Position numbers and translations under genes: made by a program
The notes under the pieces: generated by a model
The model's database searches: none
What the model saw: only the letters and a program-made list of their open reading frames with translations
What the model was told of the DNA's origin: nothing
Shown: positions 25,795 to 39,201 of the stretch, piece after piece
How positions within the stretch are numbered: the first letter of the stretch is position 1
How the letters are laid out: each line of letters starts with the position of its first letter
Source: Sphaerisporangium corydalis
GTDB lineage: Bacteria; Actinomycetota; Actinomycetes; Streptosporangiales; Streptosporangiaceae
Reading direction: 5' to 3'
Assembly (NCBI RefSeq): GCF_025506355.1
Contig: NZ_JANZYP010000001.1
Location: forward strand, 93,932-157,931
Length of the DNA stretch: 64,000 nucleotides

Positions 25795-26487
25795 CTATCG
25801 GGCCTCGGGGAGGGTCACGAGGCCGCTCTCGTAGGCGGCGATGACGAGCTGGGCCCGGTCGCGGGCGCCCAGCTTGGCCAGCAGGCGGCCGATGTGGGTC
25901 TTCACCGTGCCGACGCTGAGGTGCAGGTGCCCGGCGATCTCGGTGTTGGACAGCCCGGTGCCGACCAGGGTGAGGACCTCGCGTTCGCGCCGGGTGATGT
26001 CGCCGAGGTCGCGGGTGGCCGCGGCGGGGGCCGGGGTTCGCAGGAACCGGGCGATGAGCCGGCGGGTGGCGGTGGGCGCCAGGAGCGCCTCGCCGGAGGC
26101 GACGACCCGGATGGCGGCCAGGAGTTCGGGCGCGGTGGCGCTTTTGAGCACGAACCCGCTGGCGCCCGCCCGCAGGGAGGCGTGCACGTATTCGTCCAGG
26201 TCGAAGGTGGTGAGGATCAGGACGCGGACGCCGGCGTTGCCCGGGGCGGCGCAGATGCGCCGGGTGGCCTCGATGCCGTCCATGACGGGCATGCGGACGT
26301 CCATGAGGACGACGTCGGGCCGCCACCGGCCGGTCAGGGTCACGGCTTCGGCGCCGGTGCCCGCCTCGCCGACGGTGGTGAGCCCGGGTGTGGCGTCGAT
26401 GAGGACTTTGAGGCTGTCGCGGATGAGCGCCTGGTCTTCGGCGAGGACGACGCGGATGGGCGGGGGCGTGGCGGGGCCGGTGGTCAT
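25795..26487 (-). CDS. NarL/LuxR-type response regulator
   Basis: A 230-aa response regulator with a receiver domain (about 10-128; phosphoacceptor Asp63 in LMDVRMPVMDG) and a LuxR-type helix-turn-helix (about 160-225; LTLVGTGLSNTEIAGHLHLSVGTVKTH). Its start overlaps the upstream kinase stop by 4 bp, so the two form a cognate pair. Convergent with accC. Confidence 0.95.
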   Translation of the reverse strand: MTTGPATPPPIRVVLAEDQALIRDSLKVLIDATPGLTTVGEAGTGAEAVTLTGRWRPDVVLMDVRMPVMDGIEATRRICAAPGNAGVRVLILTTFDLDEYVHASLRAGASGFVLKSATAPELLAAIRVVASGEALLAPTATRRLIARFLRTPAPAAATRDLGDITRREREVLTLVGTGLSNTEIAGHLHLSVGTVKTHIGRLLAKLGARDRAQLVIAAYESGLVTLPEAR

Positions 26488-27683
26488 GCCGGGGTGCCGT
26501 CCGGGTCGTAGGGGAGGTGGGCGGACACGCGGAAGCCCGCGTGGGGCCGGGGGCCGGCGGTGAAGGTGCCTCCGTACATTTTGGCGCGTTCGCGCATGCC
26601 GATGAGGCCGTGGCCGCCGGGCCCGGTTCTTTGGGGCGGGCCGTGGCGGGGGCCGTCGTCGAGGATCTCGATGGCGGCCTGGTGGCGGTCGATGTCCACG
26701 GTGACCGTGCAGTCGGTGGGCCCGGCGTGGGTGATGACGTTGGTGAGGGCCTGTTGGACGATGCGGTAGACCGAGGCGGCGACGGCGGGGGGCGGCGGGG
26801 TCCGCTGCCGGACGGTCAGGGTCACGCGGACGCCGGCCGAGCGGGCGTGGTCGGCGAGTGCGGGCAGGTCGGCCATGCCGGGGACGGGCAGGGGGTCGTG
26901 GCAGGGGTCGCCGTCGGATCGCAGGAGGCGCAGGACGCGGTGGATCTCGGTGAGGGTGGTGCGGCTGGTGTCCTCGATGACGGCCAGGGCGGCGCGTACC
27001 TCCTCGGGGCGGGCGTCGGCGACGTGGTTGGCGACGGTGGCCTTGACGGCGATCAGGCTCATGCTGTGGCCGATGACGTCGTGCAGTTCCCTGGCGATGC
27101 GCCGGCGTTCGTCGGTCACGGCGGCGGCGGCGAGGTGGGCGGCCAGGCGGGCGGTGGTGTCGCGTTTGTAGCGGACGGCGGTCCCGGTGGCCCAGGCGGC
27201 GGTCAGCAGGACGCAGGTCGCGCCGATCTCTATGGGCCAGTGGGGTGGCATCTCGGTGCGCCGGGTGGCGGGGGTGAGGCCGGGGAGCACCCGCGCGTAG
27301 AAGATCAGGATGGCGGTGGCGGCGGCGGTCGCGCAGGCGGCGAGGGTGGTGGCCGACCAGCGGGGCGTGGTGGTGGCGGCGACCTGGTAGAGGACCAGGA
27401 CGGTGGGCAGGAAGGTCAGCCAGATCGCGCCCGCGGCGGCGGCGCCGGCGACGGTGGCCAGGACGCCGGTGGCGCACGCGAGGGTGAGCGCGGCGCGGGG
27501 GCGGTGGCGGCGGGCGGCGATGGGGAGGCTCAGGGCCGCGGCCACCGGCCACGCCGACCAGGCGGGCCACGAGGACGAGGGGCCGGGCGGGTCGACGATG
27601 GCGTAGCCGATGACCAGGGCCAGTGTGAGCGCCGCCGCCGCGTCGGCGGCGTGTTCTCCGGCCGGCCGCCGCGCGTGCTTCAT
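26484..27683 (-). CDS. DesK/NarX-like sensor histidine kinase
   Basis: A 399-aa kinase with about five N-terminal membrane helices (about 15-170), a HisKA_3 domain with phospho-His201 (ARELHDVIGHSMSL) and a HATPase_c domain to the end (VQQALTNVITHAG, GGHGLIGMRERAKMYGG). It should sense a membrane signal and phosphorylate the overlapping response regulator. No clear ribosome site precedes the chosen ATG, and no target genes are evident, although the membrane protein gene is divergent. Confidence 0.93.
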   Translation of the reverse strand: MKHARRPAGEHAADAAAALTLALVIGYAIVDPPGPSSSWPAWSAWPVAAALSLPIAARRHRPRAALTLACATGVLATVAGAAAAGAIWLTFLPTVLVLYQVAATTTPRWSATTLAACATAAATAILIFYARVLPGLTPATRRTEMPPHWPIEIGATCVLLTAAWATGTAVRYKRDTTARLAAHLAAAAVTDERRRIARELHDVIGHSMSLIAVKATVANHVADARPEEVRAALAVIEDTSRTTLTEIHRVLRLLRSDGDPCHDPLPVPGMADLPALADHARSAGVRVTLTVRQRTPPPPAVAASVYRIVQQALTNVITHAGPTDCTVTVDIDRHQAAIEILDDGPRHGPPQRTGPGGHGLIGMRERAKMYGGTFTAGPRPHAGFRVSAHLPYDPDGTPA

Positions 27684-27890
27684 GGGGTGAAGGTATCGCT
27701 TGGCCGGTTCGCCCGGCATCTGACCAGGGTCGGACATCGGGGTGGGTCCGGGGTCGCGGGCCGGGTGGTGCGCGCCGATGAAGATGCGACCGGGGCCGGA
27801 CGCGGCCGGGGGGTGGTGCCCGTCACGATTTCGGGGCGCCCGGCGGATCGTGCCGGGGCGCGCCGGTGCCGGCGGGAAGGGGCGGGTCAT

Positions 27891-28694
27891 ATGGATGGCG
27901 GGTCGCGCGGGGGGTTGTCGCGGTGGCGGCGGGCGGGCGCGGAGCGGCGCGCGGCCAACGCGGCGGCGAATCTGGGGGTGGGGCCGGGGTTTCCGGGGCG
28001 GTGGCTGAGCGTGATCTCGCTGATCGGCGGCCCGGTGCTGGTCATGGCGGGGATCGTGCTGCGGTCGCGGTTCCACTACTTCTTCCCCGATCAGCTGGCG
28101 GCCTACGTCCGGTACCCGGATCTGGTCACCGCCGCGTACGCGTGTTTCGCGTGCGGGATCGTCCTGTTGTGGCCGGGGGTGATGACGCTGGCGCAGCGGA
28201 TCGCGGTGACCAGCCCGATGTGGGGGCTGTGGGGCGGGGGTCTGGTGATGGTGGGGTTGTTCACCCGGACCTTCCAGTTCGGCACCGATCATCTGGCCTT
28301 CCACCTGACCGACGGTCTCGGGCTGCGGACGATGGTCGAGGGGATCGACGGGTATTACGTGGCGTGGCGGGATACGCGCTGGCATCCGTTCAGGGCGTTG
28401 TCGGGGCCGGCGTTCTTCGGCTGGGTGGTGCTGGCGGTCGGGGCCTATCGTTCGGGGGCTTTGGGGTTGGGCCGGTCGGTGGCGCTGGGGTCGATGTCGG
28501 CGCTGGCGCTCGGGACGCTGAAAGGGACCGAGCCGCAGTCGTTGGTGGCGGCGGGCGGGTTGTGCGTGGCGTTGATCCCTTTGGGGGTGTCGCTGCTTCG
28601 GGGTGGGCCGGCGCCGAGCCGGCGCGCGTGGGTGTGGTGTGTGGTGCTGGCCGGCGTGCACGTGGTCGCCACGCTGTACGGCCCGAGGGGGTGA
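27891..28694 (+). CDS. multi-pass membrane protein of unknown function
   Basis: A 267-aa protein with a basic N-terminus and about six hydrophobic helices (about 42-62, 80-105, 112-135, 180-200, 205-225, 240-262). I do not recognise a family. Tryptophan- and arginine-rich loops (YYVAWRDTRWHPFRAL) are notable. It is divergent from the two-component pair, so it could be part of that signalling unit. GGGAAGGGG precedes the ATG. Confidence 0.75.
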   Translation: MDGGSRGGLSRWRRAGAERRAANAAANLGVGPGFPGRWLSVISLIGGPVLVMAGIVLRSRFHYFFPDQLAAYVRYPDLVTAAYACFACGIVLLWPGVMTLAQRIAVTSPMWGLWGGGLVMVGLFTRTFQFGTDHLAFHLTDGLGLRTMVEGIDGYYVAWRDTRWHPFRALSGPAFFGWVVLAVGAYRSGALGLGRSVALGSMSALALGTLKGTEPQSLVAAGGLCVALIPLGVSLLRGGPAPSRRAWVWCVVLAGVHVVATLYGPRG

Positions 28695-28812: not shown

Positions 28813-29361
28813 TCAGACGGGCAGGACGCGCAGGGCGGGGTAGCGGGCGGAGTTCAGGTACAGCTTGTCGGTGCCGTGTTCCTTCTCCAGTTCCAGGACG
28901 AACCGGTAGCGGTAGAGCCCGGGCTTGGCCTCGCTCATCACCGCCCCGGCCCAGTAGTAGTAGACGGCGGTGTACTGGTCGCGCATGCGGTCGGGGGCGC
29001 CGTAGACCTTGAGTTCGGTCATGATCCGGCGTTCGGCGACGTCGTCCTCGTCGCCTTTCTCGATGTCGAGGAACACCAGGTTGTTGATCTTCGGCATGGG
29101 TGGCCAGGTGCCGTCGGCGCCGCGGTGCATGTCGATGGGGCGGATGATCCAGTTGATCACCTGGCCTTGCTTGCAGATGGTCTCCAGGTGGTCGGTGCCC
29201 TGTCCGACGCCGCCGACGCTGTTGTCCATCATGTAGAGGCAGCCGTCCAGGGATTTGGTGGCGGCGGCGCGTTCCATGTCGACGAGGGTGACCACGTTGA
29301 GCTGGACGGAGTTGAGCTGGCCGCGATCGGCGAATTCCGCGGCCGCGTATGCCTGGGTCAT
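28813..29361 (-). CDS. AidA/PixA-like protein, paralogue 4
   Basis: A 182-aa protein. Like its three neighbours it starts with a hydrophobic strand (NVVTLVDMERAA), then SLDGCLYMMDNSVGGVGQGTDHLET, a tryptophan strand (VINWIIRP) and a closing AVYYYWAGAV / PGLYRYRFVLEL block. This is the pattern of the AidA/PixA inclusion-body family, beta-sandwich proteins found in cytoplasmic inclusions of Xenorhabdus; the assignment is by my recognition and is tentative. ATGA overlap with the gene upstream. Function unknown. Confidence 0.7.
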   Translation of the reverse strand: MTQAYAAAEFADRGQLNSVQLNVVTLVDMERAAATKSLDGCLYMMDNSVGGVGQGTDHLETICKQGQVINWIIRPIDMHRGADGTWPPMPKINNLVFLDIEKGDEDDVAERRIMTELKVYGAPDRMRDQYTAVYYYWAGAVMSEAKPGLYRYRFVLELEKEHGTDKLYLNSARYPALRVLPV

Positions 29362-29816
29362 CGGCCTTCCCTTGCCTGGTCGGCGGGTCCGGCCAGGGCC
29401 GGCCGTGCGGTGGGGGTGAACGGGGTGGTGACGGTGCCGAGCAGGAACGAGATGCGGTACCGCAGGGGTTCGGTGAGGTCTTGTTTGACCTCGGCGGTCC
29501 AGAACACGATGTCGGTGCCGGGGTAGACCTTGCGGGTGGGTTCGGCGACGCGGGGGTCGATCTCGATGTCGGTGATGGCGGCGTAGGTCTCGCATTCCAG
29601 CGGGATCACGTTCCACAGCAGGGTGTCGCCTTTGGTGACGCGGCTGTGCAGTTCGGGGGTGCCGAACCCGGTGGAGCCCGCGGCTTTGTTGGTGTCGTAC
29701 AGGTAGAGGCTGTCGTCGAGGTTCTCCGAGGCCAGGGCGGCGACGGGGTCGATCACGGCGGTGATCGTCACGGGCCGGGAGGGCCGTCGTTCGGGTTGTT
29801 TGGTCTTGGGTGGCAT
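29358..29816 (-). CDS. AidA/PixA-like protein, paralogue 3
   Basis: A 152-aa member of the same tandem family: ITAVIDPVAALA, then NLDDSLYLYDTNKAAGSTGFGTPEL, TLLWNVIPLE, DIVFWTAEVKQ and LRYRISFLLG. The N-terminus carries a short basic extension (PPKTKQPERRPSRP) not seen in the others. It overlaps the following gene by 4 bp, so it is co-translated. Function unknown. Confidence 0.7.
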   Translation of the reverse strand: MPPKTKQPERRPSRPVTITAVIDPVAALASENLDDSLYLYDTNKAAGSTGFGTPELHSRVTKGDTLLWNVIPLECETYAAITDIEIDPRVAEPTRKVYPGTDIVFWTAEVKQDLTEPLRYRISFLLGTVTTPFTPTARPALAGPADQAREGR

Positions 29817-29857
29817 GCGGTTCCTTCGCTGGTGGGTGCTCCGGTCGGGGGAGGGGG

Positions 29858-30640
29858 TCAGCCCGTGGCCGGGACGGCGGGCAGGGGCAGCAGGCCGAGC
29901 CCGGCGCCGGTGAATCCGTTGCGCTTCGGATCGGTGGTGATCTTGAGGGTGGATTCGCAGGTGAGGTCCACCGACTCCCAGATCATTTCGTCGTTCTGTT
30001 CGATGAGTTCGTGGAGCTGGACGTGCATGGTGTACGGGTATTCGCCGGGGCGGCTGGTGTCGACGGTCGCGGCCCAGTACCAGCCGTCGTAGATCATGTC
30101 GGGGGATCCGTACTGGGCCGGGTACATGATCTTCTCGGTGACGGCGGGGCCGGTGATGTCGGTGATGACCGGGGCGGGGTAGTTGTAGGCGCCGGCGCTG
30201 CTGGTGGTCTTGCCGGTGACGTCGAGCAGTTTGGCGGCGGTGAGGCCGCGTCCGCCGGCCGGCTTGCGTGCGCGTTTGCCGACGCGCTTCTGCAGTCGTT
30301 TGAGGTCGGTGTCGCTGACGCCGCCGTCGGCGTTGAGGGAGGCGAGCTGGTCCAGGGTGCGCCGGTCGTCGGCGCGTTCCTGTTCGGCCAGGTAGTTGCG
30401 CGGCACCGTCGGGGGGATGGCCCCGAGGGCGGCGGGCAGCCAGTTCAGGACCTGTTCGGTGGCCTGGGATCCGTCCATGAAGTGGGTGCCGGGGACGATG
30501 GTGACCAGGTGCTCGGTGCCTTCGCCGGTGGAGCCGAACAACTTCATGTTGTCGAACCAGTAGGTGTTGCCGGCGAGGGATCGCGTGCGGAGCGCGTTCT
30601 CGACGTCGAACAGCACGATGATGCCGTGTTGCTGGGCCAT
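29858..30640 (-). CDS. AidA/PixA-like protein, paralogue 2, with lysine/arginine-rich insertion
   Basis: At 260 aa the largest of the four. It has the shared elements IIVLFDVENALR, SLAGNTYWFDNMKLFGSTGEGTEHL and GWYWAATVDTSRPGEYPY, but between the two halves carries a roughly 65-residue charged, probably helical insertion (about 80-145; RLQKRVGKRARKPAGGR). That could bind another subunit or nucleic acid. AAAGGCGG-type ribosome site upstream of ATG. Function unknown. Confidence 0.72.
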   Translation of the reverse strand: MAQQHGIIVLFDVENALRTRSLAGNTYWFDNMKLFGSTGEGTEHLVTIVPGTHFMDGSQATEQVLNWLPAALGAIPPTVPRNYLAEQERADDRRTLDQLASLNADGGVSDTDLKRLQKRVGKRARKPAGGRGLTAAKLLDVTGKTTSSAGAYNYPAPVITDITGPAVTEKIMYPAQYGSPDMIYDGWYWAATVDTSRPGEYPYTMHVQLHELIEQNDEMIWESVDLTCESTLKITTDPKRNGFTGAGLGLLPLPAVPATG

Positions 30641-30669
30641 GAAACCGCCTTTCGGTTAAAGGAGGGGGC

Positions 30670-31122
30670 TCACACGCGCATCAGCGCGGGCGAGTCGACG
30701 TGCAGCACGCTGTTGGGTCCCTCGTGGAGCTTGAGGGAGAGCCGGTACCGGTAGGGGACGCCGGGTGTCATGTCGTAGGGCACGACGCCTTCCCAGACCA
30801 GCAGGTCGTGGTTCTCGGTGCCGTTGGAGCCCATGGCGTCGACCGGGGGCGGCGCGGCGGGGGAGGGTCCGGCGGGTGGTGCGGCGGGGGCGCCGGGCAG
30901 GAATTCGATGGAGTAGATCTCGACGGGGGTCTGCACGTCGATGTGGATGGGCGTCCATTGGACGACCTGTCCGGGGATGACGGTGGTGATCAGGTCGGGG
31001 GTGCCTTGGTGTTTGCTGCCCGAGCTGTCGTCGACCAGCGACAGGTTGCCGTTGTGCAAGGTGCGGTCCGACAGCGCCCCGACGGCGTCGACCATCACCA
31101 CGATGCTGATCCTGTCTTTCAT
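30670..31122 (-). CDS. AidA/PixA-like protein, paralogue 1
   Basis: A 150-aa member: ISIVVMVDAVGALSDR, LHNGNLSLVDDSSGSKHQGTPDL, VVQWTPIHID, LLVWEGVVP and VPYRYRLSLKLHEGP. A Pro/Ala-rich segment (about 78-95) replaces the insertion seen in paralogue 2. Strong GGGAGCAACG site before ATG. It is the first of the four paralogues in the operon. Confidence 0.7.
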   Translation of the reverse strand: MKDRISIVVMVDAVGALSDRTLHNGNLSLVDDSSGSKHQGTPDLITTVIPGQVVQWTPIHIDVQTPVEIYSIEFLPGAPAAPPAGPSPAAPPPVDAMGSNGTENHDLLVWEGVVPYDMTPGVPYRYRLSLKLHEGPNSVLHVDSPALMRV

Positions 31123-31162
31123 CGTTGCTCCCTTGGGTGGGTGTGGGGGACGCGGGCCACGC

Positions 31163-32704
31163 TCAGCCCCGGTCCCTGACCAGCGGCGTCTTGCCGACGG
31201 CGGTGCGTTCGATCTGCGGTGAGGAGCGGGGCACGAACACCAGCCCGAAGGTGTATCCGGTGTGTTCGATGGCGGCGGCGGTGGCCTCGCGGTCGTTGAA
31301 CAGCGACAGCGAGGCCGGCAGCGCGGTGGTGAACAGGTGGCGGGTCCCGCTGGGGCCGAGGCCCTGGTCGATGGCGGCGGTGGTGGCCTCGGGGTCGTCC
31401 ACGGCCACCAGCAGGGTGAGGGCGCGGTCGTCGCGGTGGTTGTGGAACTGGACCTCGTGGGCGACCAGGTCCAGGTCCAGGCCGGTGGTGGAGCGCAGCC
31501 GCCCGCGCAGGGCGGCGTAAGCCAGCGTGGCGGAGTACTGGCTGTCGTTGAGGTGGAGCACGTCGGCGGTGCGCCCGGCGAACTCGAATCGCCCGGTGCG
31601 CAGCCCGGGTCCGGACAGGGCGGGGCGGCGGATCATCCGGTCGCCGAGTTTGAGCCGCAGCAGGGGTGTCTCGTCGGCGTGCAGGCGGGTGACGACCAGT
31701 TCGCCTTCCTCGCCTTCGGCGACGGCGCGGCCGTTTTCGTCCACGATCTCCACCAGGTGCAGTCCGGGGACGGCCGACAGGGCGGGGTCGGTGTGGTCGA
31801 GCTGGAGGCCGACGCATTCGGCCTGGGTGGCGGCGAAGTAGCTGAGGATGGACACGTTGGGGAAGAACGCCTGGAGTTCGTCGCGTTTGCGCTGCGGGAG
31901 TGAGCCGCTGCCGTACATGGCGACGCGGAAGCTGGCCCTGGCCTGCGGGGACAGCCCGGCGCCGAGTTCGGGGAGCAGGGCGATGCCGGCGGTGATGCCC
32001 ATGAGCGCCTTGTGGCCGGGGTAGGAGAACATGTGCTCCAGGACCGGGGCGCTGACCGGGCCCGCGCCGATGTAGTTGACGCCGGGGACGCTGGACAGCA
32101 CGCCGCCGACCATGGTGCCGCTGCTCCACATCTGGTAGTCGGCCAGGGTGGTGGCGAGCCAGCGGGGGGCGGGGCCGCGCAGGTAGCGGCCGAGCTGGTA
32201 GGCGCCCATGAACGCCCCGGCGATGCGGTAGGTGTCGCGGAGTTCCCGCAGGGAGTACACGATCTCCAGGGGCATGCCGTCGCCGGTGCCGCCGCTGGCC
32301 ACCACCTCGAATCCGCCGCGGTCCAGCGGGACGACCATGCCGGCGCGGGCGCCCATGAACATGTCCCATTGCACGGTCTTGTCCGACAGGGGGACGCGTT
32401 CCCATTCGGACATGTCGGCGGGGGCGTCGCGGATCCCGAAGTAGTGCAGCCGTTCGCGCCACAGCGGGTTGAGCAGGGCGACGCCGACGAGCTGCTGGAG
32501 GCGGCGCAGCACCAGGGCGTCCTGTAGTTCCAGGGGGGACTCGCAGTAGGGGACGCCGGTGAGGCGCCCGCATTCCTCCAGTTTCCCCGCGAAGGACGGC
32601 AGGCGGGTGACCTCCTCCACCGAGCGGGGCCGTAGCTCCTGGTCGGGGATCAGCCGTGCCGCGAGCTCCGCCGAGGAGGCGACGCCCAGGTCCGTCATGG
32701 TCAT
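31163..32704 (-). CDS. PaaK-like acyl-adenylating enzyme in the PixA-like operon
   Basis: A 513-aa protein of the phenylacetate-CoA ligase branch of adenylate-forming enzymes. The phosphate loop is degenerate (ASGGTGDGMPLEI), the ATP-binding YFAATQAECVGL replaces the usual Y-G-x-T-E, and LRLKLGDRM and GRTADVLHL follow. It would activate a carboxylic acid as an AMP ester, perhaps for transfer to CoA or directly to an amine. No carrier protein is nearby. The ATG at 32704 overlaps the decarboxylase stop (ATGA), indicating coupled translation. Confidence 0.8.
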   Translation of the reverse strand: MTMTDLGVASSAELAARLIPDQELRPRSVEEVTRLPSFAGKLEECGRLTGVPYCESPLELQDALVLRRLQQLVGVALLNPLWRERLHYFGIRDAPADMSEWERVPLSDKTVQWDMFMGARAGMVVPLDRGGFEVVASGGTGDGMPLEIVYSLRELRDTYRIAGAFMGAYQLGRYLRGPAPRWLATTLADYQMWSSGTMVGGVLSSVPGVNYIGAGPVSAPVLEHMFSYPGHKALMGITAGIALLPELGAGLSPQARASFRVAMYGSGSLPQRKRDELQAFFPNVSILSYFAATQAECVGLQLDHTDPALSAVPGLHLVEIVDENGRAVAEGEEGELVVTRLHADETPLLRLKLGDRMIRRPALSGPGLRTGRFEFAGRTADVLHLNDSQYSATLAYAALRGRLRSTTGLDLDLVAHEVQFHNHRDDRALTLLVAVDDPEATTAAIDQGLGPSGTRHLFTTALPASLSLFNDREATAAAIEHTGYTFGLVFVPRSSPQIERTAVGKTPLVRDRG

Positions 32705-34275
32705 GTGTGGCTCCCGTTCCGCTGGTCGTTTCCGGTGGCGGCGCTCGCGCGCAGCACCTGTTGCCCGATGTCCCTGATCTCGGCGATGAGCATGGCCAGG
32801 TGGCCGGCGTCGATGAGGTGGTTCATGACCACCACGCGCAGCGCCGCCACCGCGTCGATGTCGACCTTGGAGATGAAGAAGCGGCCGCCGCCCCGGATGC
32901 GGTTGCGGATCTCCAGTTGCAGCCGGTGGGCGGTGGCGTCCTGAAGGCCCGGTGGCCGGTACCGGAAGCACAGGATGTTGGATTCCGGCCGGTGGGCGAC
33001 GGCGAAGTCGGGTTCGGCGGCGATCATGTCGGCGGCCTGCCGGGTGACCTCGCACAGCCGGTCGATCTTCTGGGCGAACAGCGCCGGCCCGTACACCGAC
33101 CAGACCGCCCACAACGGCATGATCATCGGGCGTTTGGTGCATTCGAAGTTCTTGTCGGCGCTGTCGTAGGCGCTGTAGGGGTCGGGTTCCTCGTCGAAGA
33201 CGTAGCTGGCGCGCTGGCGGAACGCGCCGCGCGCGGTCGCGGCGTCGCGGTAGAACAGCAGGGTGCAGGGGGCCGGCATGAACAGCATCTTGTGGGCGTC
33301 CCAGGTGAGCGAGTCGGCCTGGTCGATGCCGCGCAGTTTGTGTCGGTGGTGGTCCGACAGCAGCAGGCTGGCCCCGTGGGCGCCGTCGACGTGCAGCCAC
33401 AGCCCGTAGCGGCGGGCGACGGCGGCGAGTTCCTCCAGGGGGTCGAAGGCGCCCATGGCGGTGGTGCCGGCGGAGGCGACCAGGCAGAAGGGGCGCAGGC
33501 CGCGCCGGTGGGCCTCGTCCAGCGCGGGGCCGGCCAGGTCGGGGCGGATGCGCCCGGCACTGTCGGCGGGGAGGCGGATGATCTGCCGTTCGCCGATGCC
33601 GAGGACCCCGGCGGCCCGGGTGACGCTGTAGTGGGTCTGTTCGCTGACCGCGATGGCGGGGGGGCCGGGGGTGCCGCCGGCGCCGCGGGTCCAGATCTGG
33701 GGGAAGGCGCGGTCGCGGGCGGCCAGCAGGGCGGTCATGTTGGCCAGGGAGCCGCCGGAGGTGGTGACCATGGCGTACCGGCCGGGTTCCCAGCCGATGA
33801 AGTGGTTGAGGTGTTCGGCCATGAGGCGTTCGGCGACGCTGGGGAGCTGGCCGGCCTCGTAGAAGGAGGAGGGCTGGTTGACCACCGAGCCGACCAGGTC
33901 GATGAGGCTGGCCAGGGGGACCACGCCGGAGAACTGGCGTCCCATGTACCCAGGGGAGTACACCGGGATGCCGGTCCCGGTGTACAGGTCGACGATCTGG
34001 TTGACCCGGTCGGCGTCGAAGTCGGCGATGTGCGCGGTCTCGTGGGTCATCAGGTCGCGTGCGGCCTTCAGCAGCACGGCGGGGTCGAGCAGGTCGAGTC
34101 CCCGGACCGAGTGGTCGCCCAGGTATCGGGTCAGGCGGGTGACGATGGCGGCGGCGCCGTCGTGGAAACGTTCGGGGTCGAAGGCCGCGGTGAGGCCCGG
34201 TGCGGGTGACCGGGGGCCTTGGCCGGTGGTCGGTTCGGGAAAGGAACTCTGGACATCGGAAAGCGAACTCGTCAC
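32701..34275 (-). CDS. PLP-dependent group II amino-acid decarboxylase
   Basis: A 524-aa aspartate-aminotransferase-fold decarboxylase of the glutamate/aromatic/diaminobutyrate group. The PLP lysine is Lys329 (TWDAHKM), with Asp297 (HVDGAH), His215 (THYS) and TSGGSLAN at 172-179. It would convert an amino acid into an amine. Residues do not let me name the substrate. The GTG start has GGAG ten bases upstream. It is first in a six-gene operon with an acyl-adenylating enzyme and four PixA-like proteins. Confidence 0.9.
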   Translation of the reverse strand: MTSSLSDVQSSFPEPTTGQGPRSPAPGLTAAFDPERFHDGAAAIVTRLTRYLGDHSVRGLDLLDPAVLLKAARDLMTHETAHIADFDADRVNQIVDLYTGTGIPVYSPGYMGRQFSGVVPLASLIDLVGSVVNQPSSFYEAGQLPSVAERLMAEHLNHFIGWEPGRYAMVTTSGGSLANMTALLAARDRAFPQIWTRGAGGTPGPPAIAVSEQTHYSVTRAAGVLGIGERQIIRLPADSAGRIRPDLAGPALDEAHRRGLRPFCLVASAGTTAMGAFDPLEELAAVARRYGLWLHVDGAHGASLLLSDHHRHKLRGIDQADSLTWDAHKMLFMPAPCTLLFYRDAATARGAFRQRASYVFDEEPDPYSAYDSADKNFECTKRPMIMPLWAVWSVYGPALFAQKIDRLCEVTRQAADMIAAEPDFAVAHRPESNILCFRYRPPGLQDATAHRLQLEIRNRIRGGGRFFISKVDIDAVAALRVVVMNHLIDAGHLAMLIAEIRDIGQQVLRASAATGNDQRNGSHT

Positions 34276-34968
34276 GGAGGAGACTCCAACTGATCCGGCG
34301 TCGAGAATGGTCAGGTGACCGGCGGGGGGTGAATTCGGGCGTGGTGGTGCCGGGTCCGGGCGGTCACATGAGGGTTCTCGCGATTAAATGCGTGAACTGC
34401 GGTGCGAGGGCGTGCGATAAAGGGTTCTCCGGGCGGCGGGGGCGGGACGGCGGTGCTGCCGTCGCCGGGCCGTCCCGGCGGGTTGGAACGGTTCAACTTC
34501 GGGGGTGGGTGGAGGGGGGATGTGGTCCGGTCGCGGGGAAGGTGGCGGTGGTGGCCGCCGCGCCCCTGGTCACGCGCAGTTCGGGCGGTGCGGGTCAGTC
34601 CGGCGGTGCGGTCGCCGGTAAGGAGGGCAAGGCGGTGGCCCGTCGGGGACGAATCACGATTAATTCGATCTGTATTTCACCCGCCGTATACGTTGGCACG
34701 CCCGTCATGTAAGCGACCTAATCATTGTTGACAGGAGGGGCGCAAGACCTCGGATGCAGGTGGAGTGGCAGATTCCGGCCAAAGTTACTTGCGTGTGGTG
34801 ATCGGGTCGGGGCCGGGGGGCTCGTGAGTTTCCCTCGTGACATTCGGGCGGGGTGGTTATTCGTGGTCGCGGCCGTGCGGTGGGCGCCCTTTATCGCCCG
34901 GACATTCTTATTGCATGCGGTTGTATTCCAATAAAGGTGGCGAAAGCCCTCGATCAGGCCATAAAAGG
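34276..34968. other. long non-coding stretch upstream of the decarboxylase operon
   Basis: No ORF here has convincing codon structure or a family match. On the minus strand the repeated GAACCCT (two copies between 34365 and 34430) and AT-rich segments may belong to the operon promoter. A TTGACA followed by AGGAGGGG occurs near 34728 on the plus strand without an evident gene. Several AT-rich patches (34660-34730, 34850-34965) stand out from the GC-rich background. Confidence 0.5.
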
Positions 34969-35015: not shown

Positions 35016-36362
35016 TCAGAAGGTCCCGGCGGTGTTGCACTTGGCGCTCTGCACGACGCAGTCCTTGACCCGGTGGCCGAGCGCGCCGTTGTCCCAGGCG
35101 TTGAAGAAGTCGCCGTGCATCGAGGAGGCCATCCCCGACGCCAGGCGGAACCCGTCGGCGGTGCCCGCCGAGGGGTAGGCGATGACGAACGACACCGACG
35201 GGATGGCCACCGGGTAGGCGCCGCCGCAGGTCCCGGTGTAGGTGTAGGCCAGGTGCGACTTGTGGTCGGGGCTGTCCAGGTGCCGGCCGTCCCAGCAGTC
35301 GGGGAAGACCAGCTGGAACATCAGGGTGGCGGTCGGCGCGCACACCGGCCAGTTGCCGTCGGCGCTGCGCCCGGTCTCGCCGCCGGGCCCGGCGCAGTAG
35401 AACTGGTTGACCGAGCCGCGCGGGGTGGGCACCTGCGACCGGGCGTCCCCGGCGATCATGCGGAAGCCCAGCGGGAACGGCACCGTCGCCGAGGCGTCGG
35501 TGAGACGGGAGCCGTAGTAGACGATCACGCCCTTGGGTTCGACGGGCCGGTCGTGCTCGTACAGGGTCGGGATCCAGTACGCCGACAGGTCCGCCGGGGC
35601 CGGCGCGCAGCTCGTCGCGGTGGTGCCGAGCAGGGACTGGGTGGTGGTCAGGGCGTCGGTGCTCCGGTTGCCGAGGAAGCTGTGCATGTGGGAGGCGCCG
35701 GGGAGCCCGGGGAACACGATCGGGTCGTCGGGCCGGGAGTGGCTGTAGGCGCAGGTGGCGTTGAACTCCGGCACGCGCACCGCGCCCGCGGGCACCGGCG
35801 CGGGGGTCATCGCCCGGAACGCGGCCAGCTGGGCGTTCCAGGCGGCCGGGTCGACGTCGGTCCACCCGCCGCCGGAGGAGGCGGTGGCCTCGAAGGAGAA
35901 CCAGTTGATGTTCGCGAAGTCGCCGCCGGCGGCCGACCGCATGATCGCGAACACCGTCTGGGGGCCGGCGGGGTGGGTGGCGGCGCTCGCGGTGGTGGTG
36001 ACCCAGCTCTGCCAGCCGCCGGTCGCGGTGACCGGCAGGCCGGCCAGCAGCGGCCCGGTGAGGGAACCGGTGCGCAGCTCCACCGTGCCCGAGCCGGCCG
36101 CGGAGGCGACGCGCACCGCGACCGTCAGCGCCGCGGTGCCGAGGTCGACGCCGTCGAAGCGCATCCAGTCGCCGGAGGCGAGGTAGGCGGCGTTCTGGCC
36201 ACCGCCGGTGTCGGCGGTCGCCTCCAGCTGCACGCCGGACTGGGCGGCGAAGGACTCGGCTTGGACGACGGTGGCGGCGGCCTGGGCGGCGGAGTGGGTG
36301 AGCGCGGTCGCGGCGAGGGCGGCGGCCAGCAGGGCGCGCAGCAGGAACTGTGGTCTTCGCAC
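35016..36362 (-). CDS. secreted CBM6 - DUF1996 protein
   Basis: A 448-aa exported protein. It has a signal peptide (about 1-30: RRPQFLLRALLAAALAATAL, cleavage after AQAAA), a CBM6-like carbohydrate-binding module (about 33-160; AESFAAQSGVQLE, GGQNAAYLASGDWMRF, NINWFSFE) and a DUF1996 domain (about 185-440; HMHSFLGN, SCGGAYP-like region). DUF1996 proteins in fungi and actinomycetes are secreted and linked to biomass; the activity is unknown. I chose the GTG at 36362 because GGAAGGAA precedes it and it gives a clean signal peptide. A CebR-like operator lies upstream. Confidence 0.9.
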   Translation of the reverse strand: MRRPQFLLRALLAAALAATALTHSAAQAAATVVQAESFAAQSGVQLEATADTGGGQNAAYLASGDWMRFDGVDLGTAALTVAVRVASAAGSGTVELRTGSLTGPLLAGLPVTATGGWQSWVTTTASAATHPAGPQTVFAIMRSAAGGDFANINWFSFEATASSGGGWTDVDPAAWNAQLAAFRAMTPAPVPAGAVRVPEFNATCAYSHSRPDDPIVFPGLPGASHMHSFLGNRSTDALTTTQSLLGTTATSCAPAPADLSAYWIPTLYEHDRPVEPKGVIVYYGSRLTDASATVPFPLGFRMIAGDARSQVPTPRGSVNQFYCAGPGGETGRSADGNWPVCAPTATLMFQLVFPDCWDGRHLDSPDHKSHLAYTYTGTCGGAYPVAIPSVSFVIAYPSAGTADGFRLASGMASSMHGDFFNAWDNGALGHRVKDCVVQSAKCNTAGTF

Positions 36363-36492
36363 GGGGGTTTCCTTCCGGGCACGGGGGGACCGCGGCGGGG
36401 GCGGCCGGGGGCGCGCCCGCCGCCGGCGGGGCGGAGCGGAAAGGCGCGCCGACGTCGTCACCCATGCTTTTGGTGCTTAATTTTAGGTGTGA

Positions 36493-36597: not shown

Positions 36598-37005
36598 TCA
36601 GCGGCCGGCCGGCGGGGCGACGAGCAGCCCGGTGCCCGGGTCGTGACCGGCCGGCGCGGGACCGGCGACGATCATGGTGGCGCGGGCCCACGGCCGTTCC
36701 CGCGACAACAGCGGCACCTCCTCCAGCAGCCACCGCGCCACGTGCGCCAGCTGCTCGGGGGATTCGCCGTCGCGGGCGGCCAGCAGCCGCTCCTGCTCGC
36801 CGAGGTGCACGATCGCCGAACCGGGTACCGCCGCGCGGAGCCGCCCGGCCAGGGTCGTCTTGCCGGCGCCGCCCCGGCCGTCGATCGCGATCACCCGAGG
36901 GCGGCCGGTGACGCCGGGCGAGGCGGCCAGCAGGTGCCGGACGGCGCCGGGCACCGACATCGGCCGCCAGCCGGTGGCCTCGGGCTCGCCTGGATGGAGA
37001 CGCAT
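36598..37005 (-). CDS. short P-loop kinase, uridine-kinase-like, probably internally deleted
   Basis: A 135-aa protein with an intact Walker A (AIDGRGGAGKTTL, about 40-52) of the uridine kinase family and the family's typical ending (ARWLLEEVPLLSRERPWARATMIVAG). The middle is missing: after the IVHLG strand the substrate-binding DLYPGWDGL region is absent, so the protein is about 60-70 residues shorter than relatives. It could be a decayed gene or a distinct short version. Start chosen at ATG 37005; an in-frame GTG lies six bases further upstream. Confidence 0.65.
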   Translation of the reverse strand: MRLHPGEPEATGWRPMSVPGAVRHLLAASPGVTGRPRVIAIDGRGGAGKTTLAGRLRAAVPGSAIVHLGEQERLLAARDGESPEQLAHVARWLLEEVPLLSRERPWARATMIVAGPAPAGHDPGTGLLVAPPAGR

Positions 37006-37128: not shown

Positions 37129-37154
37129 AATCAATGAGGTGTACATTGGTGCGC

Positions 37155-37784
37155 GTGGAGGAGACACGGCGCGAGCGCAAGAAACGGCTGACCCGGCGGC
37201 TGATCGTCACCGCCGCCCTGCGGCTGTTCGAAGAGCACGGGTACGAGGGGACCACGGTCGCCCAGATCACCGCCGCCGCCGACGTCGACCCCAAGACGTT
37301 CTTCAACTACTTCCGCAGCAAGGACGAGGTGCTGTTCGTCGACACCGAGCACACCTACGCCCTGCTGCTCGGCGCCATCGCCGAACGCCGCCCAAAGGAG
37401 GGCCCCGCCGAGGTGCTGGCGCGGATGCTGGAGCGGTTCACCGCCCACCACATGCCCGAGCTCCCCCCGGGACGGGCGCGGGAGCTGGCGCTGGCCTACC
37501 GCCTGGTCTCCACCGTGCCCGCCCTCCAGGCCAAGGCCCTGTACCTGCTGTTCGACCTGCAGCACAAGATCGCCGACGAGCTGTGCGCGGCCTTCCCCGG
37601 CCATCTGGACCCGATCACGGCGGCCGCGATGACCGGGTCGCTGATGGGCGCCGTCCAGCAGGCCGGCATCGCCGCCGTCCGCCTCGGCCGCCCCCAGCAG
37701 GACCTGTGGGAGGCCGCCCGCGTCGGCGTCGGCGTCGCCATGGACGGCCTGCGAGCACAGAAAGGACCCGACGACCATGGATGA
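37155..37784 (+). CDS. TetR-family regulator
   Basis: A 209-aa TetR protein: the HTH lies at about residues 10-55 (LIVTAALRLFEEHGYEGTTVAQITAAADVDPKTFFNYF) and the ligand domain follows. I place the start at GTG 37155, seven bases after TACATT, so the mRNA may be leaderless; an ATG at 37134 would add seven residues. Its 3' end overlaps the PaaK-like gene by 8 bp, so it probably regulates that gene through the palindrome upstream. Confidence 0.9.
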   Translation: MEETRRERKKRLTRRLIVTAALRLFEEHGYEGTTVAQITAAADVDPKTFFNYFRSKDEVLFVDTEHTYALLLGAIAERRPKEGPAEVLARMLERFTAHHMPELPPGRARELALAYRLVSTVPALQAKALYLLFDLQHKIADELCAAFPGHLDPITAAAMTGSLMGAVQQAGIAAVRLGRPQQDLWEAARVGVGVAMDGLRAQKGPDDHG

Positions 37785-39201
37785 CAGCGTCCGCCGGCTG
37801 ACACGTGACGCCCGCCGCGCCGCCGCGCAGGGCCCCGAGGCGATCGCGGCCCGGCGACGGGCCCGCCTTGCGGAGATGGTCGCCCACGCGCGCGCCGCCT
37901 CCCCCTACTACCGCGAGCTGTACCAGGACCTGCCGGAGCGGGTCGAGGACCCGGCGCTGCTGCCGGTCACCACCAAACGGGACCTGATGGGCCGCTTCGA
38001 CGAATGGGTCACCGACCCCGAGGTGACCCACGACCGCGTCCAGGCGTTCATGGCCGACCCCGGGCGGGCCGGGGAACGGTTCCAGGGCCGCTACCTGGTG
38101 GCCACCACCTCCGGCACCAGCGGCCTGCGCGGGGTGTTCGTGCTGGACGACCGGAACATGGCCGTGAACTTCGCCCTCGGCTCGCGCAGCCGGGGCGCGC
38201 TCGGCGCCGGCGCCATCGTCAAGATCCTCACCCGGGCCGGGCGCACGGCCATGGTGTCCGCGCCCGGCGGCCACCTCCTCAGCACCGCCCTGACCGCCCG
38301 CCTGCGCAAGGAGAGCCGCCGAGGCCGCGCCCTGCGGGTCTTCTCGATGTACGAGCCGCCGGCGGAGCTGTACGCCGAGCTCGCCCGGTACGACCCGGCG
38401 CTGGTCGTCAGCTCCCCGAGCATGCTGGGCCTGCTCGCCGCCACGCAAGACGCCATGCGAGGGGCCGCGCAAGAGGCCGGGCAAGGCGCCGGGCGAGAGG
38501 CGGGGCGGGCGGCCGGTCGGGCGCGGCTCAGGCCGGTGCTGGTCATCGCCGGCGGCGAGACCTCCACCGAAGACGACCTCGACCGCATCGCGGCCGCGTT
38601 CGGCGCGCCGGTCCACACCGCCTACGCCGCCACCGAATGCGGGTTCCTCGCCTACGGGTGCGAACGGCGGTGGTACCACCTCAACAGCGACTGGGCGATC
38701 CTGGAACCGGTCGACGCCCACCACCGGCCCACCCCGCCCGGGGAGCCCTCGCACACCGCCCTGCTGACCAACCTCGCCAACCGGGTGCAGCCGATCCTGC
38801 GCTACGACCTCGGCGACAGCGTCATGGCCCGCCCCGACCCCTGCCCGTGCGGGAACCCGCTGCCGGCGATCCGGGTGCAGGGCCGCGCCGCCGACGTGCT
38901 CACCTTCCCCACCGGGCGGGGCGACCGCGTCGGCATCACCCCGATGGCCTTCGGCACCCTGCTGGACCGCACCGCGGGCGTCGAACGGTTCCAGATCGCC
39001 CAGACCACCGCCACCACGCTGCGCGTACGCCTGGTCCCCTCGGCGGGCGCCGACCCCGGCCGCGTGTGGAGCGCGGTGCACGCCGAGATCACCCGCCTGC
39101 TCATCCGGCACGACGTCACCGGCGTCACCCTGGAACACGCCGAGGAACCACCCCAGCGCTCACCCGGCGGCAAGTACCGCCGCATCATCCCCCTCGCCTG
39201 A
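37777..39201 (+). CDS. phenylacetate-CoA ligase-like adenylating enzyme
   Basis: A 474-aa PaaK-family enzyme with P-loop TTSGTSGLRGVF (about 108-119), YAATECGFLAYG, RYDLGDSVM and GRAADVL, and a PCPCG cysteine pair near 352. It should form an acyl-AMP and acyl-CoA. A repeated Ala/Gly/Arg/Gln tract (about 225-248; AAQEAGQGAGREAGRAAGR) is inserted before the second subdomain. It is translationally coupled to the TetR gene. The substrate is unknown. Confidence 0.88.
   Translation: MDDSVRRLTRDARRAAAQGPEAIAARRRARLAEMVAHARAASPYYRELYQDLPERVEDPALLPVTTKRDLMGRFDEWVTDPEVTHDRVQAFMADPGRAGERFQGRYLVATTSGTSGLRGVFVLDDRNMAVNFALGSRSRGALGAGAIVKILTRAGRTAMVSAPGGHLLSTALTARLRKESRRGRALRVFSMYEPPAELYAELARYDPALVVSSPSMLGLLAATQDAMRGAAQEAGQGAGREAGRAAGRARLRPVLVIAGGETSTEDDLDRIAAAFGAPVHTAYAATECGFLAYGCERRWYHLNSDWAILEPVDAHHRPTPPGEPSHTALLTNLANRVQPILRYDLGDSVMARPDPCPCGNPLPAIRVQGRAADVLTFPTGRGDRVGITPMAFGTLLDRTAGVERFQIAQTTATTLRVRLVPSAGADPGRVWSAVHAEITRLLIRHDVTGVTLEHAEEPPQRSPGGKYRRIIPLA

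What the first reader, a model, noticed from the sequence alone, without database searches (positions are those of the whole stretch)
28813..34275. Six-gene operon: PLP decarboxylase, acyl-adenylating enzyme and four AidA/PixA-like paralogues
Seen: genes on one strand with ATGA overlaps or short gaps. The first two are an amino-acid decarboxylase and a PaaK-like ligase. The last four share a pattern of a hydrophobic N-terminal strand, a DN/GS-G-x-GT block, a Trp strand and a final YxW...Y-x-Y strand, but are diverged and differ in insertions. Known: PixA and AidA are beta-sandwich proteins, PixA forming cytoplasmic inclusions. Inference: the enzymes make an amide or amine product that four co-assembling shell or inclusion proteins store, sense or deliver. 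I know of no described system with this composition.
Basis: partly seen in the sequence, partly recalled or inferred. Interest (0 to 1): 0.9.

Follow-up and report, generated by a model that had tools for sequence, protein, structure and literature searches.

The report
Six-gene decarboxylase-ligase-PixA cassette
A block of six genes, two enzymes that look able to make and join a small amine plus four different members of a poorly understood protein family, is kept together in the same order in bacteria from about seven phyla, and I found no description of it.

Summary
Six minus-strand genes (34275-28813) encode a PLP decarboxylase (dec), a PaaK-fold adenylating ligase (lig) and four proteins (P1-P4) related to MakC/MakD and PixA. 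A genome scan and a plasmid search seeded with lig gave 76 loci. In 75 the order dec-lig-P1-P2-P3-P4 holds on one strand; the 76th is cut off by its contig end. Isolates span Actinomycetota, Pseudomonadota, Bacteroidota and Acidobacteriota; bins add Cyanobacteriota, Chloroflexota and Aminicenantes. P2, P3 and P4 are each one old lineage; P1 does not split off cleanly. In 200 Streptosporangiales genomes, ligase and P genes were found in the same 21. Of 23 probable active-site positions checked, 21 are invariant in 76 rows. Some lineages add an isochorismatase-fold hydrolase (16 of 76), an aminotransferase (3) or an efflux pump (3). Best reading: a horizontally spread small pathway that makes an amine and activates a carboxylate, probably joining them, with P1-P4 as a four-part cytosolic partner assembly. 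Product, reactions and the role of P1-P4 are not shown. Eight open-access paper searches found no description.

The parts
32701..34275 (-). dec: group II PLP-dependent amino-acid decarboxylase, 524 aa, GTG start
   Evidence: PF00282 1.7e-56; GAD/CSAD/GADL1 relatives in PDB; R113, Q114, H215, D297, H300, H328, K329, R480 identical in 76 of 76 aligned rows
31163..32704 (-). lig: PaaK-fold adenylate-forming ligase, 513 aa, ATGA overlap with dec
   Evidence: profile hit to PaaK-type ligases; AlphaFold pLDDT 86.5; Foldseek BT_0428 and PaaK1 about 6e-23; E296, D355, R378, K505 identical in 76 of 76
30670..31122 (-). P1: MakC/MakD-type protein, 150 aa
   Evidence: NF049870 1.2e-8; profile to MakC/MakD 1.4e-11
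29858..30640 (-). P2: MakC/MakD-type protein with a long insertion, 260 aa
   Evidence: NF049870 8e-10; profile 3.4e-8 to MakC; AlphaFold pLDDT 77.9; Foldseek MakD 7.7e-7, PixA 4lzk 1.5e-4
29358..29816 (-). P3: MakC/MakD-type protein, 152 aa, the closest of the four to MakC/MakD by score
   Evidence: NF049870 3.9e-15; profile 5.7e-21 to MakC
28813..29361 (-). P4: MakC/MakD-type protein, 182 aa, ATGA overlap with P3
   Evidence: NF049870 6.1e-14; profile 6.9e-9 to MakC
34276..34700 (-). upstream intergenic region, possible promoter region of the operon; alignable in 10 Streptosporangiaceae loci (the window among them)
   Evidence: DNA alignment, 72% mean column identity; invariant GAGA.CC block; not tested as a promoter

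Best explanation
A self-contained, horizontally spread small-molecule cassette. The decarboxylase makes an amine from an amino acid. The PaaK-fold ligase adenylates a carboxylic acid with ATP and passes it on, most likely to that amine, directly or through CoA, giving an amide or similar conjugate. P1-P4 are four fixed, non-interchangeable subunits of a cytosolic MakC/MakD-fold hetero-assembly that works with the enzymes or binds their product. Shown: composition, order, co-occurrence, conserved probable active-site residues, and four position-specific P types. Inferred: the reactions, the substrates, the joining step, the spread by transfer, and assembly of P1-P4.
For: Same six-gene order in 75 of 76 loci. 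Of 292 P proteins in loci without a split P gene, 289 match best the window protein of their own position. Ligase and P genes in the same 21 of 200 genomes, each with exactly four P matches on one contig. 8 of 8 checked dec positions and 13 of 15 lig positions invariant in 76 rows; the other two vary in one row each (roles of the residues recalled). PaaK fold, with NatL2, AjiA1 and ClxA also among the structural hits (that these are biosynthetic is recalled). Accessory genes that fit small-molecule chemistry: an isochorismatase-fold hydrolase within 640 bp in 16 of 76 loci in four arrangements, PF00857 in 16 of 16; a class I aminotransferase between lig and P1 in 3 of 76, PF00155 in 3 of 3; an MFS pump 0-74 bp upstream of dec in 3 of 76, PF07690 in 3 of 3. 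The labels P1-P4 need 3 changes on the tree, the least possible, shuffled mean 49.3. MakC and MakD are cytosolic and dimeric in crystals, and MakC forms large complexes in crosslinking (PMC11484084, section 12 part 1 and section 17 read).
Against: No substrate could be assigned: NCBIfam equivalog cut-offs for dec are far from met (best 179.8 bits against 606.1). No carrier protein or separate amide-forming enzyme is among the six genes. Most loci have no detected hydrolase, aminotransferase or pump nearby (lower bounds, since the gene caller missed 105 of 459 core genes). P1 is not one clade: four of 22 P1 rows sit apart. For 1257 distant pairs, distances of the enzymes and of P4 correlate weakly (dec-P4 0.06, lig-P4 0.15), which argues against tight co-evolution with P4, or reflects saturation. 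Nothing here shows that P1-P4 touch each other or the enzymes.
Confidence: 0.4

Rival explanations
1. Uptake or detoxification: the enzymes degrade or tag an outside amino acid or aromatic acid (PaaK makes CoA esters for catabolism), and P1-P4 sequester the toxic intermediate.
For: Closest structural relatives of lig are PaaK-type CoA ligases; hydrolase and efflux pump in some loci.
Against: By eye, no phenylacetate-type catabolic genes stood out among the gene starts printed for 24 loci (no dedicated search); four P proteins are many for a detoxification step.
Confidence: 0.17
2. Protein modification: the ligase activates a carboxylate on the P proteins, or a small acid to be put on them, and the amine or acid is joined to them.
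For: Tight linkage of the enzymes with all four P genes.
Against: The C-termini of P4 and P2 are not conserved in the alignments printed; PaaK-fold enzymes are known for small acids (recalled).
Confidence: 0.08
3. P1-P4 act as a signal-responsive regulator or chaperone set, as proposed for MakC/MakD with their neighbours, and the enzymes make the signal.
For: MakC/MakD are cytosolic, non-secreted accessory proteins whose loss affects expression and secretion of neighbours (PMC11484084); aidA genes are under LuxR-type control in Photorhabdus and Ralstonia (PMC10143992, passages). A response regulator with a LuxR-type domain and a HisKA_3 kinase lie downstream of the cassette in the window; relatives of both lie within about 5.9 kb of the cassette in 10 of 76 loci.
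Against: Those two-component genes stand at differing distances and sides (79 bp to 5.9 kb), and such genes are common in actinobacteria (recalled), so the link may be chance; no background was computed. The Mak effects may be polar (PMC11484084).
Confidence: 0.2
4. Anti-phage or other defence module carried on mobile DNA.
For: Sporadic presence, also on plasmids typed as conjugative in Bradyrhizobium.
Against: 0 of 6 proteins match PADLOC models at E<=0.001; a scan of viral contigs with the ligase found none; the enzymes are those of metabolism.
Confidence: 0.05

Closest known systems
MakC/MakD of the mak operon (PDB 8rqy, 6tct; NCBIfam NF049870)
   Same: The only PDB sequence relatives found for the four P profiles at E<=1 and the top fold matches for P2; cytosolic beta-sandwich proteins without known function (PMC11484084)
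   Different: Two proteins, beside pore-forming toxin genes; here four types with a decarboxylase and ligase; bits are below the family cut-off
PixA/AidA (PF12306; PDB 4lzk, 4pib, 4q52)
   Same: Foldseek relates P2 to them: best chains 1.5e-4, 4.8e-4, 1.1e-3
   Different: No PF12306 match at E<=1 in any of the four; the fit to 4lzk is loose (TM by target 0.51-0.57, rmsd 6.0-9.6 A); inclusion bodies untested
PaaK-type AMP ligases (PaaK1, BT_0428; NatL2, AjiA1, ClxA)
   Same: Same fold; checked adenylation residues conserved
   Different: About 18% identity; own nearly invariant block LADYQMWSSGTMVGGVL; partner genes differ
Group II PLP decarboxylases (GAD1, CSAD, GADL1, PanP, DABA decarboxylase)
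   Same: PF00282, catalytic lysine and histidine conserved
   Different: SPGYMGRQFSG and HVDGAHGAS where GAD1 has FFNQLSTG and HVDAAWGG; far under the equivalog cut-offs

Membership tests
PixA, PF12306 | HMM score over the 21-bit gathering cut-off | tested here: not met
   no PF12306 hit at E<=1 for P1-P4; own genome none, but controls did not ring either
PixA, PF12306 | PixA fold as in 4lzk | tested here: inconclusive
   P2 only: Foldseek 1.5e-4, probability 1.00, but TM by target 0.53 and rmsd 9.4 A for that chain; P1, P3, P4 not modelled
PixA, PF12306 | cytoplasmic inclusion bodies | not testable with these tools
   needs microscopy
MakCD, NF049870 | score over 110 bits | tested here: not met
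   35.0, 38.8, 56.0, 52.1 bits for P1, P2, P3, P4
MakCD, NF049870 | detectable homology to MakC/MakD | tested here: met
   E 1.2e-8 to 3.9e-15; best profile E 5.7e-21 to 3.4e-8
MakCD, NF049870 | operon with MakABE-type pore-forming genes | not tested
   no dedicated search was made
Group II PLP decarboxylase, PF00282 | score over 27 bits, PLP lysine | tested here: met
   192 bits; K329 in 76 of 76
ANL superfamily, AMP-binding PF00501 | score over 29.9 bits | tested here: not met
   18.1 bits
ANL superfamily, PaaK branch | PaaK fold and adenylation residues | tested here: met
   Foldseek 5.8e-23; E296, D355, R378, K505 all 76 of 76; motif names recalled
Known anti-phage system | match to PADLOC models | tested here: not met
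   0 of 6 proteins at E<=0.001

The most novel reading that the evidence does not exclude
P1-P4 form a four-part protein body, a new kind of cytosolic assembly, that is built only around one decarboxylase-ligase pathway and houses or stores its amide-like product; the whole unit has moved between at least four phyla, and probably seven, as one inherited piece.
Probability: 0.25. Interest if true: 0.88.

Novelty: categorically new. Interest (0 to 1): 0.75.

Why it matters
MakC/MakD and PixA-type proteins have solved structures but, in the papers I read, no known function. This cassette ties four of their relatives to two recognisable enzymes in more than 20 named genera (titles), so their function becomes directly testable in ordinary soil bacteria. 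It is also a lead to a possible undescribed metabolite shared by bacteria from many phyla.

Tried and rejected
Substrate of dec: hits to PanP, DABA, GAD and CSAD are far below equivalog cut-offs or are distant homologues, so no substrate is claimed. R113 stands where GAD1 has Gln, but its meaning was not tested.

Conserved neighbours: the first all-against-all of ORFs was swamped by shadow ORFs of high-GC DNA and was not used. The second used a codon-position caller that missed 105 of 459 core genes, so accessory counts are lower bounds. The MFS cluster has five loci, but L041 (3047 bp) and L059 (1664 bp) are not adjacent and were not counted. A 17th hydrolase (L094, 1995 bp away, 23-30% identical to six others) was not counted. 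L066 is counted although it is only 31-32% identical to the five others compared. Two-component genes near some cassettes were not claimed as part of the system, for lack of a background.

Viral origin: 21 stretches matched a pattern in viral contigs, none encodes a relative. Defence: no PADLOC match. Second PaaK-like gene of the window (37777-39201): no match over 80 bits beside other cassettes, so not included.

Co-evolution: distance correlations over 70 of 76 loci are 0.87-0.97 for all pairs, but for 1257 distant pairs they fall to 0.06-0.81. Not used as proof.

Rows dropped: L074, L080, L096 from the dec and lig alignments; L068 from the P2 alignments and L022 from the second; L060, L068, L074, L080, L089, L096; 22 near-duplicate rows from the ligase tree. 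The P tree used 22 loci, the window among them. The alignments for P1, P3 and P4 hold 32 rows and for P2 31 or 30.

Full report
What is in the window. Six genes lie head to tail on the minus strand from 34275 to 28813. The genome is 9.48 Mb in 162 contigs. Contigs of the same-genus genomes G004 and G001 have the same lengths as contigs of Sphaerisporangium rufum and S. melleum (126738 and 204002 bases), so the window is probably from Sphaerisporangium. dec overlaps lig, and P3 overlaps P4, by ATGA; the other gaps are 29-41 bp.

What the enzymes are. dec is a group II PLP decarboxylase (PF00282 1.7e-56), nearest in PDB to GAD1, GADL1, GAD2 and CSAD. It has its own stretches SPGYMGRQFSG and HVDGAHGAS. 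R113, Q114, H215, D297, H300, H328, K329 and R480 are identical in 76 of 76 rows (73 of the 76 loci, the window, and the second pairs of two loci). lig is below the Pfam AMP-binding cut-off. Its profile hits two PaaK-type ligases in PDB (7e-13 and 1.8e-6). Its AlphaFold model (pLDDT 86.5) matches BT_0428 (5.8e-23), PaaK1, HCL, ClxA, AjiA1 and NatL2 in Foldseek. Of 15 positions checked, 13 are invariant, E296, D355, R378 and K505 among them; R356 and D381 vary in one row each. Their link to ANL motifs A5, A7, A8 and A10 is recalled. That NatL2 serves nataxazole formation is recalled; for PMC7204872 I saw only the listing (title and start of abstract), which tells of an unstable ester intermediate.

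The four last proteins. All hit NCBIfam MakCD (35-56 bits, cut-off 110), none PF12306 at E<=1. Their profiles each find only MakC (8rqy) and MakD (6tct) among PDB sequences at E<=1. The six profile pairs score 98.0-99.9%; pairs with P2 align only 47-59 N-terminal columns. The P2 model (pLDDT 77.9) matches MakD 7.7e-7 (TM by target 0.71, rmsd 5.8 A), MakC, then PixA-type 4lzk, 4pib and 4q52 more loosely. P1, P3 and P4 were not modelled. In a quick tree of 88 P proteins from 22 loci, P2 and P3 are one side of a fully supported branch each, and P4 of one with 93. P1 needs two changes, with four of 22 rows (L067, L075, L076, L083) apart, as an ancestral stem would. All labels together need 3 changes, the least possible, shuffled mean 49.3. 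Of 292 P proteins in loci without a split P gene, 289 match best the window protein of their own position; the three others are rhizobial P1 (L022, L023, L095; best match P3 at 31-33 bits).

How widely it is found. A plasmid search with lig gave 7 records, of which 4 were opened. A scan of a collection of 84,980 species genomes with a lig alignment gave 72 loci. Together 76 loci (L021-L096) were read. dec lies next to lig in 76 of 76. The full order with P1-P4 on the same strand is in 75 of 76; L096 ends inside lig. Within that: dec is cut by the contig start in L074 and L080; one gene is split over two frames in L060, L080 and L089; three loci have an aminotransferase between lig and P1; two have a doubled dec-lig pair. 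Isolates cover Actinomycetota, Pseudomonadota, Bacteroidota and Acidobacteriota. Cyanobacteriota (Symploca), Chloroflexota and Aminicenantes rest on one metagenome bin each, which can hold foreign contigs. The scan was seeded with lig peptides, so it cannot show dec-lig pairs of diverged ligases or P sets that live alone. On the ligase tree (54 of 76 rows) starred branches force two changes each for Actinomycetota and Pseudomonadota. That fits transfer but does not prove it; for Actinomycetota the second place is one metagenome bin (L084). Copies sit on Bradyrhizobium plasmids typed as conjugative. No relative was found in viral contigs.

All or nothing. In 200 Streptosporangiales genomes, the P4 profile matched 21 (the window's own is listed among them), each with exactly four matches on one contig. 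The ligase profile at E<=1e-50 matched the same 21. In 394 genomes of the class, lig is in 4. The P3 profile matched those 4, with 3 or 4 matches each, plus two genomes with a single P-like protein and no lig match. G000 and G015 are in both samples. The tool scored only the best candidates of a loose first look in each genome (up to 17, 7, 10 and 3 in these calls), so a weak relative could be missed. Lone relatives of P exist, but in these samples the four-P set goes with the enzymes.

Accessory genes. An isochorismatase-fold hydrolase (PF00857 in 16 of 16) lies within 640 bp in 16 of 76 loci: downstream same strand 8, downstream opposite 5, upstream same strand 2, upstream opposite 1. Six representatives are 30-61% identical to each other, so the link looks recruited more than once. 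Aspartate, lysine and cysteine positions that I recall as the catalytic triad are present in the 16 by eye. A class I aminotransferase lies between lig and P1 in 3 of 76 (L067, L069, L072; PF00155 in 3 of 3). An MFS pump lies 0-74 bp upstream of dec in 3 of 76 (L084, L085, L096; PF07690 in 3 of 3; the one scanned with NCBIfam, L084, is DHA2-like). Tenacibaculum has two dec-lig pairs in a row in 2 of 76. Downstream in the window lie a response regulator with a LuxR-type domain and a HisKA_3 kinase; relatives of both stand near the cassette in 10 of 76 loci, at differing distances and sides. No background was computed for any of these neighbours.

What is known. MakC and MakD are cytosolic, not secreted, dimeric in crystals and of unknown function; MakC forms large complexes in crosslinking (PMC11484084; abstract, section 12 part 1 and section 17 read). 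PixA and AidA are described as poorly understood inclusion-body proteins (PMC9060813, passages). aidA is under LuxR-type control in Photorhabdus and Ralstonia (PMC10143992, passages). A chitin-induced inclusion body family protein annotated AidA is reported in Jeongeupia (PMC10455584, passages); it may not be a cassette member. No paper on a decarboxylase-ligase-PixA cassette appeared in the listings of eight searches of open-access PMC papers; two listings were capped (25 of 69, 25 of 272). Most subscription papers, and preprints, are not in that library.

Most likely working. dec gives an amine. lig adenylates a carboxylate and most likely passes it to that amine, directly or through CoA. 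The hydrolases suggest an amide or similar bond that must at times be cut, as resistance or recycling, and the pump suggests export. P1-P4, without obvious signal peptides by eye, most likely form a cytosolic hetero-assembly that works with the enzymes or binds the product. The reactions, the joining step and the assembly are inference. Against it: no substrate assignment, most loci without detected accessory genes, P1 not one clade, and weak distance correlation of P4 with the enzymes among distant pairs.

Verdict. Real, conserved and, as far as the searches reach, undescribed. The families are known, but I know of no system of this make-up, so I rate it categorically new as a gene system, with moderate confidence in the mechanism.

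Noticed in passing
window 37134-37784 (+) and 37777-39201 (+): A TetR regulator (PF00440) overlaps a second PaaK-like gene (likeness seen by eye; no Pfam match at 0.01). No relative of either over 80 bits lies beside other cassettes.
   Followed up: partly
window 25795-28661 (-): A response regulator with a LuxR-type domain and a HisKA_3 histidine kinase lie downstream of the cassette; relatives of both are near 10 of 76 cassettes at varying places. Possible regulator or chance.
   Followed up: partly
window 35016-36461 (-): DUF1996 plus CBM6 protein upstream of the operon (PF09362, PF03422).
   Followed up: partly
window 36642-36733 (-): ARAGORN calls a tRNA-Pro (cgg) that overlaps ORFs; probably false.
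   Followed up: no
window 34276-34700: Upstream region of dec is alignable in 10 Streptosporangiaceae loci, with a GAGAACC-like block; no regulator identified.
   Followed up: partly
L088 3241-9497 and L093 3232-9497: Tenacibaculum carries two strongly diverged dec-lig pairs in a row before one P1-P4 set.
   Followed up: partly
P2 model, window 29858-30640: After MakC/MakD and PixA-type chains, Foldseek lists SO1698, titled a Shewanella aspartic peptidase (1.6e-3, probability 1.00).
   Followed up: no
G280:C57:626-970 and G402:C3:2432-2782: Lone MakC/MakD-like proteins in two genomes of the same class without a ligase match.
   Followed up: no
L060 9525-10108, L080 595-2939, L089 10098-10922: One cassette gene is split over two reading frames in each: decay or sequencing error.
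   Followed up: no
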